DNA from: Pseudobutyrivibrio xylanivorans
GTDB lineage: Bacteria; Bacillota; Clostridia; Lachnospirales; Lachnospiraceae
Assembly (NCBI RefSeq): GCF_008935055.1
Contig: NZ_CP043028.1
Location: 2,758,501 to 2,822,500 of the forward strand
Direction of reading: 5' to 3'
DNA length: 64,000 bases
Shown here piece after piece: positions 41,183 to 56,568 of the stretch. Made by a program: the position numbers and the translations under genes. The first letter of the stretch is position 1, and each line of letters begins with the position of its first letter. The notes beneath the pieces are model-generated. The model ran no database searches. It saw only the letters and a program-made list of their open reading frames with translations, and was not told where the DNA came from.

Positions 41183-42241
41183 ATGGAAATAATAAATAAT
41201 TGTTATGAAATTAACAACAGTAGCTATTCTCTTGAGAAATATTTCAACAGTGACACAATCTTTTTTGACATAGAATGTACCGGCCTTTCTCCAAGAAAAT
41301 CTTTCATTTATATGATTGGTTACGCGACTCGTCTAGGAAACAAAATCAATATCACACAGCTTCTGGCTAATGATGAATCTGAAGAAATAGAAATCCTTGA
41401 AGAATTTGAAAGAGTTCTTGAGAATTACGAAAAGCTTTTGGGCTTCAATTCAACCCGTTTTGATGAATCATTTATAGTAGAACGATGTAGGAAGTATAAA
41501 CTTTATACAAAAATAAAAACAAAATACCATACAGATATGTATCTCGCTTCTACCAAGGCAAAATGTCTTTTGAATTTGCCTAATTATAAGCAAAAGACAA
41601 TCGAGGAATTCTTAGGCTTACATCGTGATGATAAATATAATGGTGGCGAACTTATTCCTGTATATCAAAGATATTCATTAACTCGAGATGAAGAAGCAAA
41701 GCAGCTTATCCTTTTACATAATTTTGAAGACGTTAAGGGAATGATTTACATTGCAGATATACTTTGCTATAGTGATTTGCTCACATCGGATATACGATAT
41801 ATAAATCATGAATTTGATGAAGATAAGCTTAGAATTGAGCTTGAAACAGATATTACTCTTCCATCTTCAATTAATAAAATTCGTGAATACGGTATATATA
41901 TCATAAAAGAAAATCGTATATACGTTACTTTAAATCTATTCAAAGGAAGTCTATACACGTTTCTTCCTGATTATAAAAATTACTATTACCTGGAATCAGA
42001 AGGGATTATAATTCCTCGTTCATTAGGCGAAAGCATGGATAAATCCCTCCGCCGCCCTGCCACTCGAAGGGATTGCAAAGTTGCTTTGGATAATTCTTTT
42101 GTAGCACTGCCAAAGGGGATAGATATTGGATGCACTCGAGTATTTAAAGAAAACTACGATTCGAAAGAATCATTCATTTGCGTAAATGATATTAGAGAAG
42201 ATATTCTCGTGAAAATTACTCGCTATATGTTGAAGCATTAA
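41183..42241 (+). CDS. YprB-like ribonuclease H-fold 3'-5' exonuclease
   Basis: A 352-residue protein with an N-terminal RNase H-like exonuclease domain of the YprB type (about residues 15-205). The DEDD metal-binding pattern is visible: FFDIECTGLSP (first D and E), LGFNSTRFDESFI (third acid) and LLHNFEDVKGMIYIA (last His and Asp). The C-terminal half has no recognised domain. The substrate, DNA or RNA, is unknown. It is transcribed away from rnf and is followed after 3 bases by structured RNA copy A and then by a plus-strand terminator. Confidence 0.85.
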   Translation: MEIINNCYEINNSSYSLEKYFNSDTIFFDIECTGLSPRKSFIYMIGYATRLGNKINITQLLANDESEEIEILEEFERVLENYEKLLGFNSTRFDESFIVERCRKYKLYTKIKTKYHTDMYLASTKAKCLLNLPNYKQKTIEEFLGLHRDDKYNGGELIPVYQRYSLTRDEEAKQLILLHNFEDVKGMIYIADILCYSDLLTSDIRYINHEFDEDKLRIELETDITLPSSINKIREYGIYIIKENRIYVTLNLFKGSLYTFLPDYKNYYYLESEGIIIPRSLGESMDKSLRRPATRRDCKVALDNSFVALPKGIDIGCTRVFKENYDSKESFICVNDIREDILVKITRYMLKH

Positions 42242-42244
42242 AAA

Positions 42245-42402
42245 GAGCCCAGTAGGCATCAAGCTCTTAGGTCTCTCAGTGAGACATTTAGTCGAAATCT
42301 GACCCAAAAGGATGATTACTTCAGTAATCAACTTTTGTGGTCTAGTAAGCTTTAGCTTACATTTCCAGAGAGACTCTAAGGCTTGTAGCCGTAACTGGGC
42401 TC
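42245..42402 (+). ncRNA. Structured RNA repeat family, copy A (long form)
   Basis: A rod-like RNA closed by the 9-bp stem GAGCCCAGT/ACTGGGCTC (42245-42253 with 42394-42402). Inner helices are GGC/GCC, CAAGC/GCTTG, CTTAG/CTAAG and GTCTCTC/GAGAGAC, with a bulged T after CAAGC. The top has the small GAC/GTC hairpin shared by all copies, plus an insertion with three more hairpins: CAAAAG/CTTTTG (about 42305-42336), enclosing GATTAC/GTAATC, and GTAAGC/GCTTAC (42345-42360). It shares blocks AGCTC, GGCTTG and GTAAC with copies B and C. The plus strand is favoured because it lies between the nuclease stop and a plus-strand terminator. A T-run on the minus strand beyond the closing stem could also make it terminate cheR. 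Confidence 0.72.
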
Positions 42403-42436
42403 GTATTGTTGTTGCTGTAACCAGAGGTAATTACAT

Positions 42437-42460
42437 TAGTGGCTAGCCACTATACTTTTT
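42437..42460 (+). terminator. Plus-strand terminator after RNA copy A
   Basis: The 16-bp perfect palindrome TAGTGGCTAGCCACTA (42437-42452) is followed by TACTTTTT. It overlaps the cheR stop codon (42450-42452) on the other strand. Confidence 0.75.
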
Positions 42461-43223
42461 CATAGTAGAATGAATATCTTCTCTTATATCCCAAGTCTTT
42501 GTAGTCAATAACCTGTTCTGTAGATCCAATAAACAAAATTCCATTCTGTCTCAATGACTTACAGAACTTGCTATAAACTTCTGTCTTGGCTTCATCAGTA
42601 AAGTAAATCAATACATTTCTGCACACAATCATATCGTAATTACTAGGATAAGGATCTCTAAGAAGATTATGTTCTTTAAACTCTACACATTTCTTTACTT
42701 CATCACTAATCTGATAAGAACTTCCAACCTGTGTAAAGAATTTTTTCTTTAAATCATCAGGTACATTTGCAATACTCTTCGCACTATAAAGTCCAACCTT
42801 TGCGGTTGCAATAACCTGCTTGTCCAAATCAGTAGCAAGAATCTTGATTTTATTTAAAGGAATATGCTTAGATAGGCACATAACAAGAGAATAAGGCTCA
42901 TCGCCTGTAGAGCAGGCTGCACTCCAAATCTTAAGATTCTGACCAGATTTCTTCATAAGCTCAGGAATAAACTCCTTACTCATAAGCTCCCACTGCTCTG
43001 GATTACGATAAAACTCAGAAACATTTATCGTAAGGAAGTTTACAAACTCATCAAAAACCTCTTTATCACTCTTTAAAAGCATTACATAATCATGATATTC
43101 CTTACATTTATGCTTAGCAACCAGTGAGTCGATACGACGACGCATCTGTTTCTCCTTGTAAGAGCTTAAATCAATTTTAGTAAGATTGTGAACTTCTTTC
43201 TTAAAGTTTTCGTAATTATCCAT
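42450..43223 (-). CDS. cheR: Chemotaxis protein methyltransferase CheR
   Basis: A 257-residue CheR that methylates glutamates of chemoreceptors using SAM. The N-terminal helical domain has EKQMRRRIDSLVAKHK. The catalytic domain shows NVSEFYRNPEQWELM, KIWSAACSTGDEPYSLVMCL (SAM site), DMIVCRNVLIYFTDEAK and the family's LFIGSTEQV. No other chemotaxis gene is nearby. It appears monocistronic, and no convincing promoter was found in the 100 bases upstream apart from a TATAAT near 43280. Confidence 0.95.
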   Translation of the reverse strand: MDNYENFKKEVHNLTKIDLSSYKEKQMRRRIDSLVAKHKCKEYHDYVMLLKSDKEVFDEFVNFLTINVSEFYRNPEQWELMSKEFIPELMKKSGQNLKIWSAACSTGDEPYSLVMCLSKHIPLNKIKILATDLDKQVIATAKVGLYSAKSIANVPDDLKKKFFTQVGSSYQISDEVKKCVEFKEHNLLRDPYPSNYDMIVCRNVLIYFTDEAKTEVYSKFCKSLRQNGILFIGSTEQVIDYKDLGYKRRYSFYYEKV

Positions 43224-43323
43224 ATTCTACTCCTATCCCTAAACGTAGAGTTATGCCATCCGATATAAAATTCATTATATATAAAAGATGTGTATTATTT
43301 GTTACTTTTTTGAGAATAAATAG

Positions 43324-43356
43324 AAAAGGGTTCGAATGCAAAACGCATCCGAACCC
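43324..43356 (-). terminator. Terminator of the rpiR-cmk-ispH-rpsA operon
   Basis: On the minus strand a 12-bp stem (arms 43345-43356 and 43328-43339, core GGGTTCG with one G-T pair) with a 5-base loop is followed by TTTTC. It begins 15 bases after the rpsA stop. Confidence 0.82.
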
Positions 43357-43371
43357 TCTATAAATCAAATA

Positions 43372-44496
43372 TTACTCCTCAGAAGCAGCAACTTCCTCGA
43401 TATTTACGTCAGCAACCTCTGCCTCATCAGCTTCAGCTGTCTCTGGCTCAAGAAGTGCCTTCATTGAAAGGCTAATCTTCTTCTCATCATCGTTGAACTC
43501 AACAACCTTTGCCTCGATATCCTGTCCGATAGAAAGAACATCAGATGGTTTCTCAATACGGTCCTTAGAAATCTGAGAAACGTGAAGGAGTGCATCGATA
43601 CCAGGAGCAAGCTCTACGAAGGCACCAAAATCCTTCATACGAACAACCTTACCCTTTACAACTGTGCCAACAGCATACTTGTCAGCAGCACCGTTCCATG
43701 GGTTCTCGTTGTCGAACTTGCAAGAAAGTGCAATCTTGCCGTCCTTGATTTCCTTAACAAATACCTTGATTGTATCGCCAACGTTAAGAGTCTTTGTAGG
43801 ATTCTCAACACGGCCCCAGCTCATCTCTGAGATGTGAAGAAGACCATCAGCACCACCTAAATCGATGAATGCGCCAAAGTCCTTAACATTCTTAACTGTT
43901 CCTTCGAATTCCTGACCAACAGCGATCTTAGCCATAAGCTCTTCCTGAGCCTTTGCTCTATCTGCAACAAGAAGAGTCTTTCTGTTACCGATAATTCTAC
44001 GACGCTTTGGATCGAATTCTGTAATAACAAAGCTGATTTCCTGACCCTGGTACTTTCCAAGATCCTTCTCATAAACATCTGAAACAAATGAAGCAGGAAT
44101 AAATACTCTAGCCTCATCAACAACAACTGTAAGGCCACCCTTAAGTACCTTATCAACTGTAGCTGTAAGAACTTCACCGTTCTCAAATGCTTCAGCTAAT
44201 CTCTCGTTACCCTTTTCCTGTGCAAGTCTCTTGTAAGATAAGAGAACCTGACCTTCGCCATCATTTACCTTTACGACAATAGCAGAAAGCTGGTCGCCTT
44301 CTTTAACAACAGTAGTAAGATCAACATTAGACTCGTTAGTGTACTCAGAACGTGTAATGATTCCGTCTGACTTGTAACCAATGTTTAATACGATTTCATC
44401 AGGCTTAACACTGATAACAGTACCGTCTACTACCTCTCCATTGTGTATAGTTTTGAAGGATTCCTCCAACATTTGTTCAAAGCTCATTTCTGACAT
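43372..44496 (-). CDS. rpsA: Ribosomal protein S1 homologue
   Basis: A 374-residue protein made of four S1 RNA-binding repeats: about residues 16-85 (VVDGTVISVKPDEIVLNIGY), 100-170, 190-260 (FEGTVKNVKDFGAFIDLGG) and 275-350 (VKGKVVRMKDFGAFVELAPG). An acidic C-terminal tail follows. It is shorter than the six-repeat S1 of E. coli, as usual for Firmicutes. The start overlaps ispH by 13 bases; in some clostridia the two are fused into one protein. Confidence 0.94.
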   Translation of the reverse strand: MSEMSFEQMLEESFKTIHNGEVVDGTVISVKPDEIVLNIGYKSDGIITRSEYTNESNVDLTTVVKEGDQLSAIVVKVNDGEGQVLLSYKRLAQEKGNERLAEAFENGEVLTATVDKVLKGGLTVVVDEARVFIPASFVSDVYEKDLGKYQGQEISFVITEFDPKRRRIIGNRKTLLVADRAKAQEELMAKIAVGQEFEGTVKNVKDFGAFIDLGGADGLLHISEMSWGRVENPTKTLNVGDTIKVFVKEIKDGKIALSCKFDNENPWNGAADKYAVGTVVKGKVVRMKDFGAFVELAPGIDALLHVSQISKDRIEKPSDVLSIGQDIEAKVVEFNDDEKKISLSMKALLEPETAEADEAEVADVNIEEVAASEE

Positions 44497-45329
44497 TTCT
44501 TTTGAACCTCCTCGATAATATTGTTTGGGGTGGATGCCCCTGCGGTAATACCTACACTTTCAATGGAACTAAGGTCAGAAGGCTTCATGTCATCAGCCGT
44601 CTGTATATAGTAAGTATTGTTGCATTTTGTTTTGCATATCTCATACAACTTCTGCGTATTGGAAGAGTTCTTGCTTCCAATTACTAACATAGCATCAACC
44701 TTGGCTGCTATTTCAGCGGCTTCAACCTGCCTCTTGTTAGTCGCATCGCATATTGTATTCAAAACAATAATATGATAACCTTTTTGGTTTATAATTTCAA
44801 CTAATTCTTGAAATTTATTATGATTAAAGGTGGTTTGAGACACAATACAAATAGGCACGTGAGTATTTACTGAAAAATCCACAGCTGCTTGTTCATCGGG
44901 TATAACTGTGTAATCATTTCCATTAATCCAGCCAACAATTCCACGAACCTCAGGATGCTCTGGGTTACCAATAATCACAATGTGCTCCCCCGCTTTTGAA
45001 TGTTCATCAACTGCACGATGAATCTTTTTAACAAATGGGCAGGTAGCATCGATAATATTATGTCCTTTAGACTTAAGGGCCTCTTCAACTGCGCGGGTCA
45101 CACCATGTGAACGAATAATAACAGTGCCTGCAGGATAGTCCTCAGAGGAGTTCTCTTCCATAACCTTTACACCATTTGATTCAAACTCACGAACAACTTC
45201 TTCATTATGAATGATTGGACCATAAGTATATAGAGGCTTTGTCCCCTCTGATATTTGTTTGTTTACCACATCCACTGCTCTTTGTACACCAAAGCAAAAG
45301 CCAGCAGATTCAGCTAAAGTAACTTTCAT
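44484..45329 (-). CDS. ispH: 4-hydroxy-3-methylbut-2-enyl diphosphate reductase
   Basis: A 281-residue iron-sulfur enzyme for the last step of the MEP isoprenoid pathway. Cluster cysteines are in AESAGFCFGVQRAVDVV, DATCPFVKKIHRAVDEH and LNTICDATNKRQVEA. I start at the ATG at 45329, with a GAAGG site; an upstream TTG in frame contains that ribosome site. It begins 1 base after cmk. Confidence 0.96.
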   Translation of the reverse strand: MKVTLAESAGFCFGVQRAVDVVNKQISEGTKPLYTYGPIIHNEEVVREFESNGVKVMEENSSEDYPAGTVIIRSHGVTRAVEEALKSKGHNIIDATCPFVKKIHRAVDEHSKAGEHIVIIGNPEHPEVRGIVGWINGNDYTVIPDEQAAVDFSVNTHVPICIVSQTTFNHNKFQELVEIINQKGYHIIVLNTICDATNKRQVEAAEIAAKVDAMLVIGSKNSSNTQKLYEICKTKCNNTYYIQTADDMKPSDLSSIESVGITAGASTPNNIIEEVQKKCQK

Positions 45330-45330
45330 A

Positions 45331-45993
45331 TTATTTACCTTCAATATAAGAAATAATAGTATCTACAACTTCATCGATAGTCATATTTGAGCTGTCCACA
45401 AGAGTTGCATCCTCAGCCTGTCTAAGAGGGCTGATTTCTCGGTGAGAATCTCTGTAATCTCTTTCCTCAATATCCTTAGCAATCTTAGCAAAGTCTGCAT
45501 CCTGTCCCTTTGCAACAAGCTCGTCATAACGTCTTTTTGCACGGCACTCTACAGATGCTGTAAGGAAAATCTTTACATCAGCATTTGGAAGCACAACCGT
45601 ACCGATATCACGACCATCCATAATAACATCAGTTGTCTTAGCAAGCTCCTGCTGTAATGCAACAAGCTTTGTTCGAACTGGCCCGTATACTGAAGTGGCA
45701 CTTGCCATATTTCCAACTTCCTCAGTACGAATGAGGCCTGTAACATCCTCGCCATTAAGGATAACGTGCTGAGCACCATCCTCATATTTTATTGAAACAG
45801 TAATATCATCAACTACAGATGAGATCTTTGTCTCATCATCCTTTGATATGTTTGAACGCAAAAAATATAAAGCCATTGCACGATACATTGCTCCAGTGTC
45901 AACGTAAACATATCCCATCTTTGCTGCAATAGCCTTTGCTATTGTAGATTTACCTGCACCAGCAGGTCCATCGATTGCTACATTCATTGCCAT
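45331..45993 (-). CDS. cmk: Cytidylate kinase
   Basis: A 220-residue kinase that phosphorylates CMP and dCMP. The P-loop is AIDGPAGAGKSTIAKAIA, followed by VYVDTGAMYRAMALYFL, MDGRDIGTVVLPNADVKIFL and ERDYRDSHREISPL. The ATG at 45993 has a GGAGG site 8 bases upstream, and the upstream TTG in the open frame is rejected because it overlaps that site. The cmk-ispH-rpsA order is common in clostridia. Confidence 0.96.
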   Translation of the reverse strand: MAMNVAIDGPAGAGKSTIAKAIAAKMGYVYVDTGAMYRAMALYFLRSNISKDDETKISSVVDDITVSIKYEDGAQHVILNGEDVTGLIRTEEVGNMASATSVYGPVRTKLVALQQELAKTTDVIMDGRDIGTVVLPNADVKIFLTASVECRAKRRYDELVAKGQDADFAKIAKDIEERDYRDSHREISPLRQAEDATLVDSSNMTIDEVVDTIISYIEGK

Positions 45994-46010
45994 ATTAACA
46001 TCCTCCAAAA

Positions 46011-47240
46011 CTAAATTGATAATCCGGCCAAATATCCAGTTGACCAGGCAATTTGTAAATTAAATCCTCCAGTATAGGCATCTAAATCAAGCACCTCTCC
46101 AACAAATGAAAGGCCTTCAATAGTTTTACACTTTAAGGTGGATGGGTCAATCTCTTTTACAGATACTCCACCCTGAGTGACGATTGCTTCATTATAATCA
46201 CGAAGTCCTGTAATCGTAAAAGGAAATGCCTTAAGCAAAGATACAAGCTCTGCTCTTTCCTCTTTTGTGACAGAATTGATTTGACGACTGTCATCATAAT
46301 CCATAATCTCGATAATCACAGGAACCATTGAACTAGGAAGTAGTCCTCTGATAACTGAACTTAGGTGCTTGTTCATGTTATCATTAAAATCACGAAGAAT
46401 TCTAGCATCCAATTCATCATTTGATAATGCAGGCTTCAAATCAATAAATGCCTTTAGCTTACCCTTTTTCTGCAAAATCTTTCCGATAATTGAGCTGGCA
46501 GAAAGAACAAGCGGACCACTCACTCCAAAGTGAGTGAATAACATCTCTCCGAAGCTGTCATAAAGCTTTTTCTTTTCATCGAAAATAGTAAGATTGACAT
46601 TTTTGAGAGCCAGTCCCTGCATTGAAGGAATATAGCTTTCGGCAGTGTTAAGCGGAACTAAAGCAGGCCGTGTATCTGAAATTGCAAGTCCTGCTGACTT
46701 GGCCCATTTAATTCCATCACCTGTCGAACCAGTAGTACGATAAGATAAACCACCAGTTGCAACAACTACATGATCACATGTCAGATTCTTGCCATTTTTT
46801 AAGCTAACCCCAGTAACCTTTCCAGCTTCAATATGAAGTGATTCAACCTCTGTGTGAAGAAGGACTTCCACACCAACCTCTTTCAAAGCCTTGTCCAAAG
46901 CCTTAGTGATATCTGAGGCGTGGTCAGAAACAGGAAAAGCGCGATTACCTCTTTCAACTTTTGTAGGTGTGCCATGAATCTCGATAAAATCAATCATCGA
47001 CTCTGGTCCAAAGGTATACATGGCAGAATATAAAAATTTAGGATTAGAAACAACATTCTTAAAGAAATCTTCTATATCACAGGCATTGGTAAAATTGCAA
47101 CGTCCCTTGCCAGTAATATAAATCTTTTTTCCAAGCTTCTCATTTTTTTCAAGAAGCTTTACGGAATGTCCACACATCCCTGCAGCGTAAGCAGCCATCA
47201 TTCCAGCAGCGCCGCCACCAATAACTAAAACATTTGACAT
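46011..47240 (-). CDS. HI0933/BaiN-like flavoprotein
   Basis: A 409-residue FAD-dependent oxidoreductase of the HI0933 (YhiN/BaiN) family. The N-terminal dinucleotide motif is VLVIGGGAAGMMAAYAAGM. Family segments are LEKNEKLGKKIYITGKGRCN, VVVATGGLSYRTTGSTGDGI and the C-terminal YTGGFNLQIAWSTGYLAG, which closes the FAD site. The physiological substrate is unknown. It shares 1 base with rpiR and precedes cmk by 17 bases. Confidence 0.92.
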   Translation of the reverse strand: MSNVLVIGGGAAGMMAAYAAGMCGHSVKLLEKNEKLGKKIYITGKGRCNFTNACDIEDFFKNVVSNPKFLYSAMYTFGPESMIDFIEIHGTPTKVERGNRAFPVSDHASDITKALDKALKEVGVEVLLHTEVESLHIEAGKVTGVSLKNGKNLTCDHVVVATGGLSYRTTGSTGDGIKWAKSAGLAISDTRPALVPLNTAESYIPSMQGLALKNVNLTIFDEKKKLYDSFGEMLFTHFGVSGPLVLSASSIIGKILQKKGKLKAFIDLKPALSNDELDARILRDFNDNMNKHLSSVIRGLLPSSMVPVIIEIMDYDDSRQINSVTKEERAELVSLLKAFPFTITGLRDYNEAIVTQGGVSVKEIDPSTLKCKTIEGLSFVGEVLDLDAYTGGFNLQIAWSTGYLAGLSI

Positions 47241-48154
47241 TAAAACTCTCCTGGATAAGACATTCTGATGGAATCATCAACCATATCTATCTCATCATTT
47301 TCATAAAACTGATACTCAGACCAAACATTTTCAATCATATCCAAAGTCTGGGCAACATCCTTCTGTCTGCGATTGCAAAGCTCAACAATTAAAGCATTAA
47401 TAACAGAAAGTGGTGCCACCAATGAATCAACAACAGAATGCATATCGCTTTCAGCAATAAGATTGCAGGAACTATAAAGATTCATAGGTGAATGAATTGA
47501 ATCGGTAATTGTAATAACATGGGCCTGTCGATTGTTTGCAAACTCCAGAGCCTTTAGTGTGCGCATTGAATATCTAGGGAAAGAAATACCTATAATACAA
47601 TCACTGTCATCTATGTGAATCATCTGCTCAAACAACTCTGATGCAGAGGAAGTTTGAAGATTTACCACATTATCAAAAATCATATTCAGATAAAATGCAA
47701 GAAAGGATGCAAGCGGTGAGCAGGTACGTATACCTACAATATATATACGTCTGGCATTAAGAATTGCCTCCACGGCATTTGAAAATGCAGCCTCGTCGAT
47801 ATTTTCCATGGTGTTCTTGATTTTGATAGCGTCAGAAGAAAGTACCTCTCGAAGAACTCCATTCTGTTCAATACCACCATTAGTTATCTCGACTCGGTCT
47901 GTAGTGTTAAGCTTTGAGCGAACCATTGTCTCCAAAGCCTGCTGAAATTCTGGATAACCACTATATCCAATGTATGAAGCAAATCGAACAACAGTAGACT
48001 CTGAAACTCCGATAATATCTCCAAGCTTTGCAGCCGTTAAGAAAACAGCCTTATCGTAATTATCAATAATATAATTAGCTAGGAGCTTCTGTCCTTTTGA
48101 CATCTTTCCATATTTTTCGTTTATCTTTGAAATTAAGTCAGTTGTAGTTGCCAT
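47240..48154 (-). CDS. RpiR/MurR family transcriptional regulator
   Basis: A 304-residue regulator. The N-terminal helix-turn-helix domain (about residues 1-77) contains DIIGVSESTVVRFASYIGYS. A SIS sugar-phosphate-binding domain (about residues 120-255) has RRIYIVGIRTCSPLASFLA and IGISFPRYSMRTLKALEFA. Such proteins sense phosphosugars or amino sugars. No sugar gene is adjacent, so its targets are unclear, and self-regulation of this operon is possible. It is the first gene of the operon through rpsA, with a GGAGG ribosome site and a strong promoter. Confidence 0.92.
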   Translation of the reverse strand: MATTTDLISKINEKYGKMSKGQKLLANYIIDNYDKAVFLTAAKLGDIIGVSESTVVRFASYIGYSGYPEFQQALETMVRSKLNTTDRVEITNGGIEQNGVLREVLSSDAIKIKNTMENIDEAAFSNAVEAILNARRIYIVGIRTCSPLASFLAFYLNMIFDNVVNLQTSSASELFEQMIHIDDSDCIIGISFPRYSMRTLKALEFANNRQAHVITITDSIHSPMNLYSSCNLIAESDMHSVVDSLVAPLSVINALIVELCNRRQKDVAQTLDMIENVWSEYQFYENDEIDMVDDSIRMSYPGEF

Positions 48155-48179
48155 TAAAAGCTCCTCCTCTCAGATTTTC

Positions 48180-48208
48180 ATTATAGACAAAAATATAGGG
48201 CAATGCAA
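48180..48208 (-). promoter_or_regulatory. rpiR operon promoter
   Basis: TTGCAT (48203-48208) and TATAAT (48180-48185) are spaced by 17 bases on the minus strand, about 25 bases before rpiR. The -35 lies within the hairpin of the preceding operon's terminator. Confidence 0.72.
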
Positions 48209-48225
48209 GAAATCCTGCATTGCCC
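48189..48225 (-). terminator. Terminator of the decarboxylase operon
   Basis: On the minus strand a 10-bp perfect stem (GGGCAATGCA/TGCATTGCCC, arms 48216-48225 and 48198-48207) with an 8-base loop is followed by TATATTTTT. It begins 14 bases after the oadA-like stop. Confidence 0.85.
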
Positions 48226-48239
48226 GAATATTCAAATAA

Positions 48240-49658
48240 TTAAACTGGATAAGCCTTGTTTTCCTTGTCAGCCTTAGCTGGATCAACCTTTGTCTGCTGA
48301 GCCTCACGATATTCGAAGAACTCTGTAGCAACCTTTGGGAACAATGCGTATGTGAGAACATCCTCATCCTGCTGCTTCCATCTAGCGCACTCTTCTTCAA
48401 ACTTCTTAAGACCTGGCTCAATAAGGTCTGCTGGACGACATGTGATTGCCTTATCCTTATCTGCACCAAGTGCCTTCTCAACAACCTCTGGATTGAAAGG
48501 CTTTACAGTCTGACCATACTTACCAAGTAAGATGTCCTTAGTCTGCTCTGTAACAACCTTGTATCTTTCACCCATAAGTACGTTGAATACAGCCTGTGTA
48601 CCAACAATCTGAGATGAAGGAGTTACAAGTGGTGGCTCACCAAGGTCCTTACGCACACGAGGTACTTCCTCAAGAACCTCACGAAGCTTATCTTCCTTAC
48701 CCTGCTCCTTTAACTGGCTGATAAGGTTTGAAAGCATACCACCTGGGACCTGATAACGAAGTGTATTGATGTTAACACCAAGTACCTTTGTAGACATAAG
48801 ACCGCTCTCGATGCACTCTTCTCTGTATGGACGGAAGTAATCAGCGATTTCTGAAAGAAGCTCCTGATCAAATCCTGTATCATATGGAGTACCTTCGAAT
48901 GCAGCAGCCATAACTTCTGTAGCAGGCTGTGATGTACCAAGTGCAAATGGTGACATAGCACAGTCAATAATATCAGCACCAGCTTCAACTGCCTTCATAT
49001 AAGTCATTGAAGCTACACCAGATGTGTAATGTGTGTGCATTTCGATAGGAAGCTTTGTAGATTCCTTTAATGCTGAAACAAGCTCGTAAGCCTTTGCTGG
49101 AACAAGAAGACCAGCCATATCCTTGATACAGATTGAATCAGCACCCATATCTTCGATTCTCTTTGCGATATCTTTCCAATAATCAAGAGTGTAAGCCTCA
49201 CCAAGAGTATAAGAAAGAGCTACCTGAGCATGTCCCTTTTCCTTATTAGTAGCCTTTACAGCTGTCTGAAGATTTCTGATATCGTTGAGACAGTCAAAGA
49301 TACGAATGATATCAATACCATTTGCAATTGACTTCTGAACGAAGTACTCAACAACATCATCTGGATACTGGCTGTATCCTAAGATATTCTGACCTCTAAA
49401 AAGCATCTGAAGCTTTGTATTCTTGAAGCCATCACGAAGTTTTCTAAGTCTTTCCCATGGATCTTCCTTGAGGAAACGAAGTGAAGCATCGAATGTAGCA
49501 CCACCCCAGCACTCTACTGCATTGTAACCAACCTTATCCATCTTATCTACGATAGGAAGCATCATAGAGGTTGGCATACGAGTTGCAATAAGAGACTGAT
49601 GGGCATCTCTAAGTATTGTCTCAGTTATTTTAACTGGCTTTGGACTAATATCTGCCAT
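48240..49658 (-). CDS. oadA: Oxaloacetate decarboxylase alpha / pyruvate carboxyltransferase subunit
   Basis: A 472-residue biotin-dependent carboxyltransferase of the OadA/5S type. The N-terminal HMGL-like TIM barrel (about residues 10-280) has ITETILRDAHQSLIATRM, GGATFDASLRFLKEDPWERL and CIKDMAGLLVPAKAYELVS (metal-site region). The conserved carboxylase domain follows (VRKDLGEPPLVTPSSQIVGT). The C-terminal biotin domain of E. coli or Klebsiella OadA is absent; the carrier is encoded separately in this operon. It moves CO2 between biotin and pyruvate/oxaloacetate, and is the last gene before a terminator. Confidence 0.93.
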   Translation of the reverse strand: MADISPKPVKITETILRDAHQSLIATRMPTSMMLPIVDKMDKVGYNAVECWGGATFDASLRFLKEDPWERLRKLRDGFKNTKLQMLFRGQNILGYSQYPDDVVEYFVQKSIANGIDIIRIFDCLNDIRNLQTAVKATNKEKGHAQVALSYTLGEAYTLDYWKDIAKRIEDMGADSICIKDMAGLLVPAKAYELVSALKESTKLPIEMHTHYTSGVASMTYMKAVEAGADIIDCAMSPFALGTSQPATEVMAAAFEGTPYDTGFDQELLSEIADYFRPYREECIESGLMSTKVLGVNINTLRYQVPGGMLSNLISQLKEQGKEDKLREVLEEVPRVRKDLGEPPLVTPSSQIVGTQAVFNVLMGERYKVVTEQTKDILLGKYGQTVKPFNPEVVEKALGADKDKAITCRPADLIEPGLKKFEEECARWKQQDEDVLTYALFPKVATEFFEYREAQQTKVDPAKADKENKAYPV

Positions 49659-49693
49659 TTATTTTATCCTCCTAAATATTGATGAAGTATTTA

Positions 49694-50842
49694 CTATACC
49701 CCGAAAATAGCCATAAATACACCGGCTGCAACGGCAGTTCCGATAACACCAGCTACGTTAGGTCCCATAGCATGCATAAGGAGGAAGTTTGTTGGGTCCT
49801 CTTCTGCACCAACCTTTTGAGATACACGTGCTGCCATAGGAACAGCAGAAACACCAGCTGAACCGATAAGTGGATTAATCTTACCACCAGTAATGTGGCA
49901 AAGAAGCTTTCCAAATAATACACCGGCCGCTGTACCGAAAACGAAAGCAACAAGACCAAGAACTACGATCTTGATTGTAGCTGCGTTCAAGAATGCCTCT
50001 GCAGATGTTGAAGCACCAACTGATGTACCAAGAAGAATAACTACGATGTACATCAAAGCGTTTGATGCAGTCTCAGTAAGCTGATTTACAACACCTGACT
50101 CTTTGAATAAGTTACCAAGCATCAGCATACCAACAAGTGGAGCTGTTGTAGGTAAGATAAGACAAACGATAATAGTAACAACGATTGGGAAGAGAATCTT
50201 CTCAAGCTTTGATACTGGACGAAGCTGAGCCATCTTTATTGAACGCTCTTCCTTTGTAGTGAGAGCCTTCATGATAGGTGGCTGAATGATTGGAACCAGT
50301 GACATATATGAATATGCTGCAACAGCAATAGGTCCCATTAATGCTGACTGGCCTAACTTACCAGCAAGGAAAATAGATGTAGGTCCATCTGCACCACCGA
50401 TGATTGAAACGGCAGCAGCTGCCTGATCCGAGAATCCAAGGAAGATTGCAAGGATGTAAGCTGTAAAAATACCAATCTGAGCAGCAGCACCAAGCCAGAA
50501 GCTGATTGGATTTGCAATAAGTGGACCGAAATCTGTCATAGCTCCTACACCCATGAAAATAAGTGAAGGAAGAATTGAATACTCATCAAGAGTATAGAAA
50601 TAGTAAAGCAAGCCGCCTACTCCGTTGGAGGTTTCCTCAGGAGATGCAATGATATCAGGATAAATATTTACCAAAAGCATACCGAATGCGATAGGTAATA
50701 AAAGAAGTGGTTCATATCCCTTTTTAATTGCAAGGTAAAGGAAAACACAGGCAACCGCTATCATGACAAAGTTACCCCAGGTCAGATTGAAAAATGCAGT
50801 CTGATGGGCGAGGTTTAACAATGTCTCTCCAACGTAACTCAT
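49694..50842 (-). CDS. oadB: Na+-translocating decarboxylase beta subunit
   Basis: A 382-residue integral membrane protein of the OadB/MmdB/GcdB family, which decarboxylates carboxybiotin and pumps Na+ outward. Conserved segments are FMGVGAMTDFGPLIANP, SIIGGADGPTSIFLAGKL (with the functionally important aspartate) and NPLIGSAGVSAVPMAARVSQ. About nine or more hydrophobic helices are present. It lies between the biotin carrier and the OadA-like gene. Confidence 0.95.
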   Translation of the reverse strand: MSYVGETLLNLAHQTAFFNLTWGNFVMIAVACVFLYLAIKKGYEPLLLLPIAFGMLLVNIYPDIIASPEETSNGVGGLLYYFYTLDEYSILPSLIFMGVGAMTDFGPLIANPISFWLGAAAQIGIFTAYILAIFLGFSDQAAAAVSIIGGADGPTSIFLAGKLGQSALMGPIAVAAYSYMSLVPIIQPPIMKALTTKEERSIKMAQLRPVSKLEKILFPIVVTIIVCLILPTTAPLVGMLMLGNLFKESGVVNQLTETASNALMYIVVILLGTSVGASTSAEAFLNAATIKIVVLGLVAFVFGTAAGVLFGKLLCHITGGKINPLIGSAGVSAVPMAARVSQKVGAEEDPTNFLLMHAMGPNVAGVIGTAVAAGVFMAIFGV

Positions 50843-50856
50843 GTGTAATCCTCCTA

Positions 50857-51213
50857 TTAGTTCATAGTTGCAAGAAGTGCGCCTGCGTCAACCTGCTGAC
50901 CTTCATTACAATTGATAGATGCAACTGTTCCGTCCTGTGGAGCAACAACTGGTGTTTCCATCTTCATTACTTCAAGAACAACAACAGGATCACCCTTCTT
51001 TACAGCAGTACCAGCTGCAGCAGCAATCTTAACTACCTTACCAGCTGCACCAGCCTCAATCTTAACACCACCAGCAGCGCCAGTAGCTACAGGAGCAGCA
51101 GGAGCTGCCTTTGGAGCTGCTACAGGAGTAACTGGAGATACACCTGAGCCTCCCTTATCTTCTACAGTAACGTCATATACTGTTCCATTAACAGTGATTG
51201 TATAATTTTTCAT
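50857..51213 (-). CDS. Biotin carboxyl carrier protein of the Na+ decarboxylase
   Basis: A 118-residue carrier. The N-terminal part NYTITVNGTVYDVTVEDKGG is followed by a flexible proline/alanine linker (about residues 28-50) and a biotinyl domain with VVLEVMKMETPVVAPQDG, whose lysine in EVMKMET is the biotin site. The carrier shuttles CO2 from the carboxyltransferases to the beta subunit. It corresponds to GcdC/MmdC or the 1.3S subunit of transcarboxylase. Confidence 0.94.
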   Translation of the reverse strand: MKNYTITVNGTVYDVTVEDKGGSGVSPVTPVAAPKAAPAAPVATGAAGGVKIEAGAAGKVVKIAAAAGTAVKKGDPVVVLEVMKMETPVVAPQDGTVASINCNEGQQVDAGALLATMN

Positions 51214-51225
51214 GGATAAATCCTC

Positions 51226-52020
51226 CTAAAATCTTTTCTTGATGGAACGTACTACAAATGAATCTGTAGAAGCTCCTGTGCTTGCAGCAATTGCTGCAGC
51301 GATGACAGCTACAAGCTGTAAATCATCAGTTTCATTCTTTGCAGCTGCAGCAACTGGTGCAGCAACTGGCTTAACAACACCCTGTGGCTCTTCCTTCTTT
51401 TCCTTTGCTCTCTTCTCAAGCTTAGGAATGATTTCAAAGCATTTGATAACACCTGACATGATAACCAGCATAAAGAATACAATAAGAATTCCCATTACTG
51501 TATTAAGTGCTGCCTTCTTCATGATTTCAGATAATGTGTAAACTGGCTCAACATTAACTGCTGTAGGACCAGCGTCAACATCATTTGCCTTATAAACAAA
51601 TGTTGTCTTTAAGTTTCTTACTGAGTAGTCAGTAATGAGTGTAGCTGTGATTGTCTTTCCAGACTTCTCAACAGTTACGTCTTCGAATTTTTCAAATTCG
51701 CCTACCTCAACGTCCTTAATTTCCTTATAGCTTTCAAGGAGCTGATCAAAACCAACGAAGCTCTTTGATAAGAATGATGGCAAGCCTGCCTGTGCAACTG
51801 CATCACCATACTCTCCTAAGCCGTTTGCCATGAAGTAATCTGTAGCCTCCTGGTATTGAGACTCATCAAGGCTTAAAGCGTAATTCATGTAAAGCTTAGC
51901 AACTGTATCGTAGGTCTCTGTGCTATATCCGCCATAAGTATCATCCTTCTTGCCACCACAGGCAACAAGGCTAAGAGCAAGGATTAAGGTAGTGAAAACT
52001 ACTATTATTCTTTTCTTCAT
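51226..52020 (-). CDS. OadG-like gamma subunit fused to an N-terminal lipoprotein domain
   Basis: A 264-residue protein in two parts. The N-terminus is a lipoprotein signal (hydrophobic helix ending LSLVAC, cysteine near residue 21) followed by an extracytoplasmic domain of about 145 residues of unknown function. Residues about 165-200 are a membrane helix (NTVMGILIVFFMLVIMSGVI), then an Ala/Pro linker and a C-terminal segment LVAVIAAAIAASTGA typical of OadG/MmdD tails. Gamma subunits usually anchor and assemble the pump and are only about 80-130 residues. The added outer domain is unusual. Confidence 0.85.
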   Translation of the reverse strand: MKKRIIVVFTTLILALSLVACGGKKDDTYGGYSTETYDTVAKLYMNYALSLDESQYQEATDYFMANGLGEYGDAVAQAGLPSFLSKSFVGFDQLLESYKEIKDVEVGEFEKFEDVTVEKSGKTITATLITDYSVRNLKTTFVYKANDVDAGPTAVNVEPVYTLSEIMKKAALNTVMGILIVFFMLVIMSGVIKCFEIIPKLEKRAKEKKEEPQGVVKPVAAPVAAAAKNETDDLQLVAVIAAAIAASTGASTDSFVVRSIKKRF

Positions 52021-52038
52021 AAATTCACCTTCCTGCTC

Positions 52039-53373
52039 TTAAAAGAACATCTCAAATCCTGCAATAATGTATTTTCTAGCATCTGCATAAGAAACGATTC
52101 TATCGATGTGTCCATGTGCAGCTGCTGTAAGTGCACTATCCTGAAGCTGAGCATAATCCTTCTCGATTGCTGCAGCATCTGTGCCATTCTCACTAAGGAT
52201 TCTAGCAGCCTTAGCAGCTTCCATAGCACCAACTGAAACATTCTCGAAAGAATATACTAAATCAGCACCAAGTGACTTTGAATTCATAAGAACATAAGCT
52301 GAACCATAAGCCTGCTTTGTAATAAGGTTAATCTTTGGAATGCTTGCATCAACGAAACGCTGTGTCAACTGTGAAAGAGCTCTAGGAAGTCTCTTCTCCT
52401 GACATGTGCATGACTTAAATGCAGCAACATTTGTAAGAGAAAGAACAGGAATTTCGTACATATCACAAAGATCTACGAAATCAGCAGCCTTCTCGCAGCC
52501 TGCAGCTGAAAGGAAAGCTTCTCCGTCAACTTCTCTATTACCAACAACGCCGATTGTAACGCCGTCAAGCTTCATGAGACCTGTAACCATTTCCTTTGCA
52601 AAACCAGCCTTGAGCTCGATGAACTCGCGATTATCAGCAAGCTCTGTAGCAACAGCTGCAGCATCAGAAACCTTAGCCTCAAGTCCCTCAGATGCTCTGT
52701 TAAGATCATCTGTAGCTTCTACGATATCGTTAGGAATCATAGAAATAACCTGTCTCATTGAAGCAACAACTTCATCAAGAGAACCGTACATATCAACTGT
52801 ACCAGCCTCTTCGAACTGGAACTTAGCAGATGATGTATCACACTCATCAGAACGATTTCCAGTAATTGTATCAGGTGAGTTAATGAAAAGAGATGCTCCA
52901 TCAACCATAAATGTGAAATCTGCAAGTGCAGGAAGAACCGAAAGTCCACCGCCGCACTGACCAGCAACACAAATAAGCTGAGGAATAACACCCTTAACAT
53001 CAGCAGCTCTCTCAATTACAGAGCCAAGTGCCTCAAGAGCATCAAAAGACTCCTGAAGACGTACGCCACCGCAATCGATAAAACCGATGACTGGAGCACC
53101 AACCTTAAGTGCCATTTCATAAACCGACAGAATCTTCTTCGCATGCATCTCACCAATTGTACCGCCTAATACTTCGGCATTCTGGCTGAAGACAAACACT
53201 AATGTGCCGTCAATAAGACCATGTCCAATAATTACTCCGTCTGATGGTTCTTTCTTTGCATCAAGGTTAAAATCAGTGTTGCGTGACACTACTAATGACT
53301 GAAGCTCAACAAAGCTGTTGTCATCCAGTAATGCGTTAATTCTAGCCTGAGCTTGATTTAAATCATTACCCAT
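52039..53373 (-). CDS. Acyl-CoA carboxyltransferase subunit (MmdA-like)
   Basis: A 444-residue carboxyltransferase of the MmdA/GcdA/PccB (12S) family, with crotonase-like N- and C-terminal halves. Segments are DGVIIGHGLIDGTLVFVFSQ, GFIDCGGVRLQESFDALEAL, CVAGQCGGGLSVLPALADFT, and the second half KINLITKQAYGSAYVLMNSK. It is shorter than the usual 510-520 residues. It should exchange CO2 between an acyl-CoA (methylmalonyl-CoA or similar) and biotin, but the exact acyl group is not readable. It is the first gene of the operon, with a GGAGG site. Confidence 0.9.
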   Translation of the reverse strand: MGNDLNQAQARINALLDDNSFVELQSLVVSRNTDFNLDAKKEPSDGVIIGHGLIDGTLVFVFSQNAEVLGGTIGEMHAKKILSVYEMALKVGAPVIGFIDCGGVRLQESFDALEALGSVIERAADVKGVIPQLICVAGQCGGGLSVLPALADFTFMVDGASLFINSPDTITGNRSDECDTSSAKFQFEEAGTVDMYGSLDEVVASMRQVISMIPNDIVEATDDLNRASEGLEAKVSDAAAVATELADNREFIELKAGFAKEMVTGLMKLDGVTIGVVGNREVDGEAFLSAAGCEKAADFVDLCDMYEIPVLSLTNVAAFKSCTCQEKRLPRALSQLTQRFVDASIPKINLITKQAYGSAYVLMNSKSLGADLVYSFENVSVGAMEAAKAARILSENGTDAAAIEKDYAQLQDSALTAAAHGHIDRIVSYADARKYIIAGFEMFF

Positions 53374-53420
53374 CTTGTACCTCCATTTATATAAAATATT
53401 TCAAATTTCTCGCAAGTTTA

Positions 53421-53449
53421 ATGATATCGTTTTTTATGCCCCAAATCAA
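53421..53449 (-). promoter_or_regulatory. Decarboxylase operon promoter
   Basis: TTGATT (53444-53449) and TATCAT (53421-53426) are spaced by 17 bases on the minus strand, about 50 bases before the carboxyltransferase gene. Confidence 0.62.
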
Positions 53450-53456
53450 TGTACTT

Positions 53457-53512
53457 TTGTTAAAAAATTGTCACAATATTGTGTTTTGTATATTGTCTAA
53501 ATTTTTTAACAA
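53457..53512. promoter_or_regulatory. Nested inverted repeats upstream of the decarboxylase promoter
   Basis: TTGTTAAAAAATT (53457-53469) and AATTTTTTAACAA (53500-53512) form a perfect 13-bp inverted repeat with a 30-base spacer. Inside it is the perfect 12-bp palindrome CACAATATTGTG (53472-53483). The array ends 7 bases upstream of the -35, the expected place for an activator or a redox/metabolite regulator. TTGTTAA and TTAACAA resemble Rex half-sites, but the spacing does not fit a Rex operator. Confidence 0.5.
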
Positions 53513-53530
53513 AAAATATTGACAAAAAAA

Positions 53531-53620
53531 CCACCCTGTTACTGTCTCAAGCCTTGGTATTACTCTGTTCAACAAAATGTTTCACTGAGTAACACCAAGA
53601 GCTCGATATTTACAAGGTGG
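53531..53620 (-). ncRNA. Structured RNA repeat family, copy C (followed by a U-tract)
   Basis: On the minus strand this begins 8 bases after the scpB stop. The closing stem CCACCTTGT/ACAGGGTGG (53612-53620 with 53531-53539, one G-U pair) is followed by seven T (53524-53530), so it doubles as the scpB terminator. Inside are CGAGC/GCTTG (one G-U pair), the bulged T, and a continuous 13-bp helix from CTTGGT/ACCAAG through GTTACTC/GAGTAAT. An apical AAC-N5-GTT hairpin is flanked by GA on both sides. The helices correspond to those of copies A and B, but many pairs are changed on both strands. The inner GGC/GCC helix of the other copies is not formed here. Confidence 0.7.
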
Positions 53621-53628
53621 TCTAAAAT

Positions 53629-54201
53629 TTATATAGTAACTTCTACATTGTTTGCCTCATTTTCTGCTTCGATTTTGAATTCCTCAATTTGGGACTGAGA
53701 AAGCTCTGGAAGCTCTTCAATCGAACTAACACCAAAGGAACGAAGGAATTCTTCAGTGGTACCAAAAAGCATTGGTCTGCCTGGCGCATCTAATCTTCCA
53801 AGCTCTGCACAAAGTCCAAACTCAACAAGCTTAGAAACAGCAAAGTCAGAGGAAACGCCTCTAATCTTTTCGATTTCAGATTTTGTGATTGGCTGCTTAT
53901 AGGCGATAATTGAAAGAGTTTCAAGAAGAACATCTGTAAGAACGTACTTCTTAGGCTGCTTTGCAATTCGAATCAGATACTCATAGATATCAGGGCTTGT
54001 ACACATCTGGTAAGCTCCATCAATCTCAGTGATTGTAATACCTCTTTTATCCTTCTCATAAGAAGCCTTCAAAGAATTAACGGCTTCAACTACCTGCTTA
54101 TCTTCGATTTCAAGAGCTTTTGCTATTTTGGATGGTTCAACTGTACCACCCATGGCAAATAAAATGCCCTCCACTATATTTTCAATTTCTTTTATATTCA
54201 T
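53629..54201 (-). CDS. scpB: Segregation and condensation protein B
   Basis: A 190-residue ScpB, a paired winged-helix protein that binds ScpA in the SMC condensin complex. Characteristic segments are IENIVEGILFAMGGTVEPSK, TDVLLETLSIIAYKQPITKS, IRGVSSDFAVSKLVEFGL and GRPMLFGTTEEFLRSFGV. It lies 21 bases after scpA. Confidence 0.96.
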   Translation of the reverse strand: MNIKEIENIVEGILFAMGGTVEPSKIAKALEIEDKQVVEAVNSLKASYEKDKRGITITEIDGAYQMCTSPDIYEYLIRIAKQPKKYVLTDVLLETLSIIAYKQPITKSEIEKIRGVSSDFAVSKLVEFGLCAELGRLDAPGRPMLFGTTEEFLRSFGVSSIEELPELSQSQIEEFKIEAENEANNVEVTI

Positions 54202-54222
54202 AATTATTTAACTCCAAACATT

Positions 54223-54978
54223 TTAGGCAGCAATCTTAGACTCAATGACGATATCCTTAAAGGTATCCTCCTGAGTGATGTTAATCTGTCCAGCCTTCAT
54301 CATCTCTAAGATACAAAGGAATGTTACGATTACCTCTGTCTTTGAGTGAGCTGCCTCCAAAAGATGTCTAAAGCTGAAAGTATTATGAGCTCTGGCAAAA
54401 GCAATTGTCCACTCCATCTTCTGCTCAAGCGAAACCTCTTCCTTCTTAATTTTTCCGAAGGTAGAACGAATAGGATCTCGTCTATTATCCTGTCTCTTAA
54501 GAACCTGCTGAAAAATATCATTAAGCTTATTTAAAGTCAAATCACTCATAAGCTCTTCCAAATCAACAGGCTGCTCGAACTTCAAAACCTCCTCAGGAAT
54601 GGTTGGTTCCTTATAAAAAACAAGACTTGCATCCATCTGGCGATCACGTAGCTGGTAAGAAATAGTCTTGTACATCTTATACTCAAGCAACTGCTGAACA
54701 AGCTCTGCACGAGGATCTTCCTGCTCTTCGCCCTCCTCTTCCTTTTCCTCTCGTGGGAGAAGCATACGACTCTTGATGTCAAGAAGTGTGGTTGCCATAA
54801 GAAGAAACTCTGACATAACATCCAGGTCGCTGTTATCCATAGCTCGAACATACTCCATATATTGGTCAGTAATCTCAACAATAGGAATGTCGTAAATATC
54901 TACTTTATTCTTATCAATCAAATGTAACAACAAATCCAGAGGACCCTCAAAAACTTGAAGCTTTACATTCATCTCCAT
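54223..54978 (-). CDS. scpA: Segregation and condensation protein A
   Basis: A 251-residue kleisin that bridges the SMC ATPases. The N-terminal VKLQVFEGPLDLLLHLIDKN is diagnostic, an acidic stretch (EEKEEEGEEQEDPRAELVQQ) is in the middle, and the C-terminal winged helix includes FSFRHLLEAAHSKTEVIVTF. The ATG at 54978 follows AAGGGAG; a second ATG six bases on is possible. Its leader carries structured RNA copy B, which ends about 8 bases before the ribosome site. Confidence 0.96.
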   Translation of the reverse strand: MEMNVKLQVFEGPLDLLLHLIDKNKVDIYDIPIVEITDQYMEYVRAMDNSDLDVMSEFLLMATTLLDIKSRMLLPREEKEEEGEEQEDPRAELVQQLLEYKMYKTISYQLRDRQMDASLVFYKEPTIPEEVLKFEQPVDLEELMSDLTLNKLNDIFQQVLKRQDNRRDPIRSTFGKIKKEEVSLEQKMEWTIAFARAHNTFSFRHLLEAAHSKTEVIVTFLCILEMMKAGQINITQEDTFKDIVIESKIAA

Positions 54979-55001
54979 AAATTATTCTCTCCCTTAGATC
55001 C

Positions 55002-55086
55002 GCCTGTTACGGCCACAAGCCATAGTAATTCTCCGCTCGACTACCACGTCTCGCTTGAGAATTCTATGAGCTTGATGCCTACAGGC
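55002..55086 (-). ncRNA. Structured RNA repeat family, copy B (scpA leader)
   Basis: Minus-strand element in the 5' leader of scpA. The closing helix is GCCTGT/ACAGGC (55081-55086 with 55002-55007). Inner helices are GGC/GCC, CAAGC/GCTTG, CATAG/CTATG and AATTCTC/GAGAATT, with the same bulged T after CAAGC as in the other copies. The apical GAC-N6-GTC hairpin is flanked by GA. An alternative hairpin ATGAGC/GCTCAT at 55065-55090 competes with the long-range fold. It should be transcribed from the promoter at 55132-55160 and ends about 8 bases before the scpA ribosome site, which would suit cis-regulation. Confidence 0.72.
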
Positions 55087-55099
55087 TCATAAAAGACGT

Positions 55100-55131
55100 A
55101 AAAAAGTCCCATACGCCTTATGTATGAGACT
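55100..55131 (-). terminator. icd terminator, interlocked with the scpA promoter
   Basis: On the minus strand AGTCTCATAC (55122-55131) pairs with GTATGGGACT (55105-55114; one G-T pair) around a 7-base loop, followed by six T. Its 5' arm directly abuts the -10 of the scpA promoter, so the predicted start point of that promoter falls inside this arm. Confidence 0.82.
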
Positions 55132-55160
55132 ATTATAATAGACCATATTGTGTGAGTCAA
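55132..55160 (-). promoter_or_regulatory. scpA (RNA copy B) promoter
   Basis: TTGACT (55155-55160) and TATAAT (55132-55137) are spaced by exactly 17 bases on the minus strand, 35 bases after the icd stop. This is one of the two closest matches to consensus in the window. Confidence 0.78.
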
Positions 55161-56400: not shown

Positions 56401-56419
56401 AACATATCTCCTATAATCC

Positions 56420-56555
56420 GTAAAATGCTCCAACGCATTCTTGCTCCCGCAGGGCACCCTCCGCACCTTTGCGAGGGTCCTCCCGCCGGCGTAGGTCCTC
56501 CCTCGCTCGGCACGGTATCCCCTGCTCGCGCTTGCCTAGATTGAGTGCATTTTAC
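56420..56555 (-). ncRNA. GC-rich rod-like structured element between leuS and icd
   Basis: The 168-base leuS-icd gap holds a block (about 56440-56535) that is strikingly G+C-rich for this genome. On the minus strand it is closed by GTAAAATGC/GCATTTTAC (56547-56555 with 56420-56428). Inside, GCAGGG/CCCTGC, then CCGTGCC/GGTGCGG (two G-U pairs), then GCGAGGG/CCCTCGC stack into a long rod, with GGGAGGACC occurring twice near the tip. It ends about 20 bases before the icd start. I cannot assign it to a known RNA class; it could be an icd leader, a small RNA or a dispersed repeat. Confidence 0.45.
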
Positions 56556-56568
56556 TCATCTAAACAAT

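What the first reader, a model, noticed from the sequence alone, without database searches (positions are those of the whole stretch)
42245..55086. Three-copy structured RNA family with compensatory changes, no class recognised
Elements at 42245-42402 (+), 53531-53620 (-) and 55002-55086 (-) align along their whole length when read in one orientation. All keep AGCTC with a bulged T on the 5' side, GGCTTG and GTAAC on the 3' side, and an apical GA-RAC-N5/6-GTY-GA loop. The helices change on both strands together: CTTAG/CTAAG, CATAG/CTATG, CTTGG/CCAAG; then GTCTCTC/GAGAGAC, AATTCTC/GAGAATT, GTTACTC/GAGTAAT; and apical GAC/GTC versus AAC/GTT. That is what selection on RNA structure produces. In each case the orientation follows the nearby gene's strand. 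I compared it from memory with common riboswitch, 6S, SRP, T-box and ribozyme consensus features and found no match.
Basis: seen in the sequence. Interest (0 to 1): 0.88.

Follow-up and report, generated by a model that had tools for sequence, protein, structure and literature searches.

The report
Hundred-copy modular RNA rods between genes
One genus of rumen bacteria carries up to about a hundred copies or more per genome of a newly recognised folded RNA element, placed between genes and at gene ends, kept in shape by matched mutations and built of modules that nest inside one another.

Summary
Confirmed, and far larger than three copies. A covariance model from the three copies finds at least 109 distinct places in the stretches I held of this genome and matches in 28 of 29 genomes of its genus, Pseudobutyrivibrio; draws from 248, 128 and 214 other genera gave none (few candidates scored per genome). 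No Rfam match. Helices covary strongly, also among copies at one orthologous site. Copies are intergenic: enriched at convergent gene ends, depleted at divergent ones, mostly sense between tandem genes. Some fill gaps between cistrons right up to the ribosome-binding site; at one gene end the element sits on a terminator-like stem. It is modular: it nests in itself, once around a second unlisted family F2, and shares outer frame and apical insert with F2. Best reading: a dispersed RNA punctuation element that works like REP/BOX repeats (mRNA end protection, processing, cistron spacing) without meeting REP membership. Selfish mobile DNA is the main rival. Function is inferred, not shown.

The parts
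42245..42402 (+). copy c1, long form: P1 GAGCCCAGT/ACTGGGCTC is a terminator-like stem after the yprB-like exonuclease gene
42296..42364 (+). apical module M2 inside c1 (two extra hairpins; ends GTCTAGTAAGC-TTTA-GCTTACAT), very similar in 13 other long copies of this genome and related to the apex of some F2 elements
53531..53620 (-). copy c2, after scpB; outer stem CCACCTTGT/ACAGGGTGG followed by TTTTTTT (terminator form)
53524..53530 (-). T-run directly after c2
54999..55088 (-). copy c3 in the 5' leader of scpA, directly before its ribosome-binding site (GA-frame form: TATGAGCC...GGCGGATCTA)
54223..54978 (-). scpA, downstream of c3; used to find the orthologous site in the genus (gene name recalled, no family search made)
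53629..54201 (-). scpB, upstream of c2 (gene name recalled)
41183..42241 (+). yprB-like exonuclease-domain gene, upstream of c1; used to find the orthologous site in the genus (gene name recalled)
56394..56580 (-). copy of the second dispersed family F2 in the leader of the isocitrate dehydrogenase gene (gene name recalled), in the outer frame TTTAGATGAG...CGGATTA also seen round leader copies of this element

Best explanation
The three copies are members of a Pseudobutyrivibrio-specific family of dispersed RNA rods (called R1 here). Shown by sequence: a conserved core (GUA - P2 - NN - CAAGC, bulged U, P4, P5, tandem-GA apical hairpin, back through GGCUUG - NN - P2' - GUAAC) sits on a site-specific outer stem. 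Near start codons the outer part tends to be a GA-frame (UUARRUGAG...CGGAYUA) followed at once by the ribosome-binding site; at the yprB and scpB ends it is a terminator-like stem. Inferred: the rod is transcribed and punctuates mRNAs as REP and BOX repeats are thought to do. At 3' ends it turns the terminator hairpin into a long barrier against 3' exonucleases. Between cistrons it separates or processes the messages and leaves the next ribosome-binding site just outside the rod. The constant internal loops probably bind a common factor (RNase, RNA-binding protein or ribosome-associated protein). Spread and nesting occurred by an unidentified route.
For: Covariation in 108 own copies: 93.5% of cells paired against 73.3 shuffled and 28-39 slid; score 0.543 against 0.166; 24 of 31 pairs with changes on both sides (this one measure is weak: shuffled mean 20.8, 5 of 500 reach it). 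Similar in 107 copies from other genomes and in 10 copies of which 9 are from the scpA leader of different genomes. Loop letters are nearly constant in the own copies: A 108 of 108, bulged U 104, GUA 106/107/105 of 108. At the yprB site G008 and G004/G288 have quite different but paired outer stems. G-U over A-C 80:15 and 52:10. 208 of 216 copies intergenic; in own-genome loci occupied gaps are 64 tandem, 27 convergent, 2 divergent against 109, 10, 33 free gaps (p=7e-6 divergent, 4e-6 convergent); tandem copies 106 sense, 39 antisense. GA-ends in 34 of 58 copies within 30 nt of a start codon, 26 of 146 elsewhere, p=4e-8. 40 of 216 fill operon-like gaps. Sites are shared between species.
Against: No transcript, stability or binding data; the function is by analogy. 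39 of 145 tandem copies are antisense to both genes. T- or A-runs flank only 53 of 146 copies away from start codons and 10 of 58 near them. G-U pairs are only about 3% of cells, fewer than is usual for RNA under structure selection (general knowledge). G-U:A-C is only 14:6 in antisense copies. The scpA and yprB sites are without the element in most congeners seen, so no single copy is essential. 30 of 108 own copies have a near-identical other copy. The 107 outside copies come from loci chosen with a sequence pattern (80 of 95 stretches used), so their constant letters are partly my selection; the covarying stem letters are not. Gene calls are from my own simple caller.
Confidence: 0.48

Rival explanations
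1. Selfish non-autonomous mobile palindrome (MITE- or REPIN-like) moved in trans; avoidance of promoters and genes alone gives its distribution, and the hairpin is kept because the transposition machinery needs it as single-stranded DNA or as ends.
For: Patchy occupancy of orthologous sites (6 changes for the scpA leader in 27 genomes, 4 for the yprB end in 26 with the site in view); c2 site without a match in the other scpA loci held, one of them cut short; 30 of 108 own copies have a copy at least 90% identical; enrichment at convergent and depletion at divergent gaps, read in the BOX paper PMC3049150 as a sign of parasitic elements (passages); TA-rich borders (TTARRT|GAG...GGA|YTA); copies nested in copies, 9 of 216.
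Against: Outer ends differ with location, not expected for transposase-recognised ends. No autonomous relative found, though only one transposase family was searched. Y1 transposase matches in 10 of 29 genomes although 28 of 29 have the element, and no element within 1.5 kb of the three in the own genome. Covariation among copies at the same scpA site. One strict exact pattern found nothing in viral contigs. Target duplications were not demonstrated.
Confidence: 0.34
2. A regulon mark: all copies bind one genus-specific regulator or ligand that changes expression of the adjacent genes (riboswitch- or CsrA-like).
For: Nearly constant internal loops and apical tandem-GA hairpin, leader copies directly before ribosome-binding sites.
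Against: The genes behind 29 leader copies look unrelated by eye (not run through a family library); many copies lie at 3' ends or between convergent genes; in the one leader copy folded together with its start region the rod did not take in the ribosome-binding site (L030).
Confidence: 0.12
3. A DNA-level element (gyrase or nucleoid site) whose palindrome is kept perfect by replication template switching; the RNA is incidental.
For: Mostly Watson-Crick stems with few G-U pairs; long palindromes can be corrected by template switching (general knowledge); weaker G-U excess in antisense copies.
Against: Template switching would also erase the one-sided internal loops (A against GUA, bulged U), which are nearly invariant; G-U exceeds A-C on one strand; sense bias.
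Confidence: 0.06

Closest known systems
REP / BIME / REPIN repeats (GTAG-tagged REPs)
   Same: Many dispersed intergenic palindromes, mostly between unidirectional and convergent genes, likely transcribed; singletons and dimers (PMC3733652, passages read).
   Different: GTAG-REP stems are 5-13 bp and were reported from Proteobacteria, Cyanobacteria, Chloroflexi and the PVC group (same passages). R1 is an ~88 nt rod with about 31 pairs and fixed internal loops, most host genomes searched show no Y1 transposase match, it nests in itself, and its outer ends vary with location.
BOX, RUP and SPRITE repeats of pneumococcus
   Same: Narrow host range, modular composition (boxA-B-C), intergenic, predicted to fold when transcribed, few clear links with function of neighbouring genes (PMC3049150, passages read).
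   Different: Sequence relation not tested; R1 modules are concentric hairpin segments, not linear modules; R1 is depleted at divergent gaps, BOX slightly enriched there.
ERIC and Correia elements
   Same: Dispersed folded elements in transcripts that can trigger RNase E or RNase III cleavage (as stated inside PMC3049150).
   Different: Other hosts; no sequence comparison made here; cleavage of R1 not tested.
Intrinsic (Rho-independent) terminator
   Same: c2 and some 3' copies are hairpins followed by a T-run; at the yprB end several other species have an ordinary terminator hairpin at the same place.
   Different: The loop is replaced by the conserved R1 core.

Membership tests
Any Rfam 15 family | covariance model match | tested here: not met
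   Whole window at E<=1: one chance microRNA hit elsewhere; 8 further loci with R1, M2, F2 or other inserts: tRNA genes and weak hits in L043 only, none at the elements; 4 loci with F2: one weak hit outside the elements.
GTAG-REP / RAYT system | short GTAG-tagged palindrome with 5-13 bp stem | tested here: not met
   R1 has a GTAG at the core border but about 31 pairs and internal loops.
GTAG-REP / RAYT system | Y1 tyrosine transposase gene, typically flanked by the repeat | tested here: not met
   PF01797 matches, fragments included, in 10 of 29 genomes while R1 is in 28 of 29; covariance model R2 finds no R1 at E<=1 in the three G000 loci with the gene and 1.5 kb on each side. Flanks in other genomes were not examined.
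MITE | terminal inverted repeats and target-site duplication at filled versus empty sites | tested here: inconclusive
   Borders are TA-rich and sites without the element exist in congeners, but the congeners compared are too diverged to prove a duplication.
MITE | related autonomous transposon | not tested
   Only the Y1 family was searched; other transposases with matching ends were not.
BOX repeat | boxA/boxB/boxC sequence | not tested
   No BOX sequence was fetched; host and layout differ.
Riboswitch / regulon leader | consistently related downstream genes | tested here: not met
   29 downstream genes of leader copies look unrelated (judged by eye from protein starts; not run through a family library).
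Structured RNA under selection | covarying pairs beyond shuffled and slid controls | tested here: met
   R-scape itself was not available, and shuffles do not keep the relatedness of copies; the slid controls do.

The most novel reading that the evidence does not exclude
Pseudobutyrivibrio has a combinatorial RNA architecture: independent rod modules (R1 core, F2 core, M2 apex) inserted into one another's hairpin tips, into a common leader frame and into terminator loops, spread by a hairpin-targeted process not yet known and kept by selection as genome-wide operon punctuation.
Probability: 0.3. Interest if true: 0.88.

Novelty: new variant of a known kind. Interest (0 to 1): 0.72.

Why it matters
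Small interspersed repeats are common in bacteria, but whether they are parasites or serve the transcript is seldom testable. Here more than 200 copies with dense compensatory change, in a genus with cultured rumen strains, allow a direct test. The nesting of modules, and location-dependent outer stems around a constant core, point to a way of spreading or a binding factor that did not turn up in the listings I searched.

Tried and rejected
Riboswitch-like single regulon: rejected as leading idea because the genes behind leader copies look unrelated. REP/RAYT membership: rejected. Phage cargo: one strict exact pattern absent from viral contigs. A wider host range: covariance searches drew 249, 129 and 215 genera and matched one genus each time, with only 12-14 candidates scored per genome, so rare or weak copies could be missed. 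The frame TTARRTGAG...CGGAYTA sought by regular expression gave 35 R1, 6 F2 and 74 other bodies against 62 for the reversed motif (control not deduplicated), so most 'other' bodies are probably chance or truncated R1; two looked like further cores (L047 716-, L112 3982-) and were not pursued. T/A-run association is only moderate. Papers: the listings (no paper) showed no title describing this element; I opened none of the papers in those listings except passages of PMC2887815. Subscription journals and preprints are not held, so this is weak evidence of absence.
Full report
WHAT IS THERE. I wrote the common structure by hand from the three copies (31 pairs) and built a covariance model R1. In the window it finds the three copies plus the opposite-strand echo of c2, which is nearly palindromic. 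In the own genome it finds 102 matches at E<=1, only 150 of 367 candidates having been scored. I fetched stretches round them. The 68 sources hold 122 matches; after dropping 11 opposite-strand echoes and 2 duplicates, 109 places remain. On the 108 aligned copies median pairwise identity is 0.60; 30 of 108 have another copy at least 90% identical, the closest 98.9%. A few copies are shortened at the apex (for example L070 13003, L049 2039).

WHO HAS IT. Among 29 genomes of the genus, 28 have matches, 1 to 136 per genome at E<=1e-4 (150 candidates scored per genome; the numbers may include some opposite-strand echoes; the one without a match is 83% complete). A strict pattern scan of one genome for each of 84,980 species gave 95 stretches, 94 titled Pseudobutyrivibrio and one Butyrivibrio fibrisolvens 16/4, whose contig length 3164379 is that of congener G009. 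Contig lengths 891515 and 287553 likewise tie G013 and G279 to Pseudobutyrivibrio sp. YE44 and P. ruminis DSM 9787. So the genus of the window is Pseudobutyrivibrio by inference. Draws from the family (250 genomes, 249 genera), order (295, 129 genera) and phylum (299, 215 genera) had matches in this genus only, with 12-14 candidates scored per genome.

STRUCTURE. On 108 copies of the own genome 93.5% of cells are paired (shuffled 73.3%, slid 28-39%), 678 cells have changes on both sides (shuffled 198), 24 of 31 pairs have such a change (shuffled 20.8; 5 of 500 shuffles reach it), covariation score 0.543 against 0.166. On 107 copies from 80 of the 95 pattern stretches the figures are 94.2%, 675 cells, 28 of 31 pairs and 0.540. 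Loop letters are nearly constant in the own copies: the A facing GUA in 108 of 108, the bulged U in 104, G, U, A in 106, 107, 105. On inner pairs G-U exceeds A-C 80 to 15 and 52 to 10, so one strand seems selected. By context the ratio is 78:18 in sense tandem, 29:4 in convergent and 14:6 in antisense copies.

WHERE IT SITS. By a simple gene caller of my own, 208 of 216 copies are intergenic. In own-genome loci occupied gaps are 64 tandem, 27 convergent and 2 divergent; free gaps of 20 nt or more in the same loci are 109, 10 and 33. Between tandem genes 106 are sense and 39 antisense to both (own genome 55:13, others 51:26). Copies within 30 nt of a start codon, in sense, have GAG...GGA-type ends in 34 of 58 cases against 26 of 146 elsewhere (p=4e-8), and the ribosome-binding site often follows at once. 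Forty of 216 fill gaps in operon-like pairs. Flanking T- or A-runs are commoner away from start codons (53 of 146 against 10 of 58, p=0.0075). Genes behind 29 leader copies of the own genome show no common theme by eye.

ORTHOLOGOUS SITES. ScpA was found in all 29 genomes. Of 30 loci held, 9 have R1 in the scpA leader, same orientation; one locus (G005) ends before the leader. On the 27-genome tree it is 8 of 27 and needs 6 changes (the ninth copy is a second scpA locus of G284). The yprB end is occupied in 7 of 26 genomes of the tree with the site in view (G287 is cut there), 4 changes. At the c2 site only the own genome has a match; one other locus (G282) is cut short there. At the yprB end, species without R1 have an ordinary hairpin, nothing obvious, or an F2 element (G015); those with R1 mostly have it on a terminator-like stem whose letters differ between relatives while pairing is kept. 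In the scpA leader other species have a plain gap, an F2 element (G007, G014, G015, G018) or another insert (G010). Copies in the scpA leader covary among themselves (10 rows, one of them c2: 18 of 31 pairs with double changes, shuffled 9.5, none of 500 reach it).

MODULARITY. Nine of 216 copies are double-deckers by a motif search, an R1 core inside another R1 core. Fifteen of 109 copies of the own genome are longer than 140 nt and 14 of them share the apical module M2; the outside copies could not be long because the search pattern limited their length. A module like M2 also caps some members of a second dispersed family, F2. F2 (AGCGCGAG...CGGGAGCA) is in 25 of 29 genomes by exact pattern with no hits of the reversed control, has no Rfam match in the loci tried, and in 6 of 36 copies held it sits in the same GA-frame as R1, one of them in this window before the isocitrate dehydrogenase gene. 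One of the 36 sits inside an R1 core (L254).

HOW IT MOST LIKELY WORKS. Shown by sequence: structure, constancy of loops, intergenic placement, location-dependent outer stems, sharing and turnover of sites. Inferred: transcription, protection of 3' ends, separation or processing of cistrons, a common binding factor. Comparison with REP (PMC3733652, passages) and BOX (PMC3049150, passages) suggests the same kind of role; the defining REP features tested are not met. Selfish mobility remains the main rival: target duplications could not be tested with such diverged congeners, 39 copies are antisense, and some copies are nearly identical.

SCORES. Structure and family: near certain. Function: about even odds for transcript punctuation. 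Novelty: new variant of small interspersed structured repeats; the combinatorial nesting is the most surprising part.

Noticed in passing
window 56394-56580 (-); also L073, L076, L240, L256, L257 and others: Second dispersed structured family F2 (AGCGCGAG-N50-80-CGGGAGCA), 25 of 29 congeners by exact pattern, no Rfam match in the loci tried; the long stems look covarying by eye but were not counted.
   Followed up: partly
G007:C2:308247-308477, G007:C2:310132-310344, G011:C1:367138-367374, G015:C98:47122-47320, G281:C2:48828-49046, G016:C23:58888-59127, G005:C305:6820-7050: F2 and R1 matches repeatedly lie 5' end to 5' end in opposite orientation, less than 60 nt apart.
   Followed up: no
window about 55098-55160 (-): Leader of scpA: a promoter-like TTGACT-N17-TATAAT followed at once by a hairpin and T-run, seen by eye in many congeners with or without the element; its role at the very start of the transcript is unexplained.
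   Followed up: no
L196 upstream of scpA (G010): A further, different hairpin-rich insert at the same scpA leader site.
   Followed up: no
L047 716 (-), L112 3982 (-): The GA-frame TTARRTGAG...CGGAYTA may hold still other cores (many such matches are chance).
   Followed up: no
L042 11338/11433, L044 220/319, L050 2150/2254: Pairs of R1 elements 5' end to 5' end, 6-10 nt apart, recalling REP dimers.
   Followed up: no
L245-L247: Three equally scoring Y1 transposase genes (IS200-type by recall) in the own genome, without R1 within 1.5 kb.
   Followed up: yes
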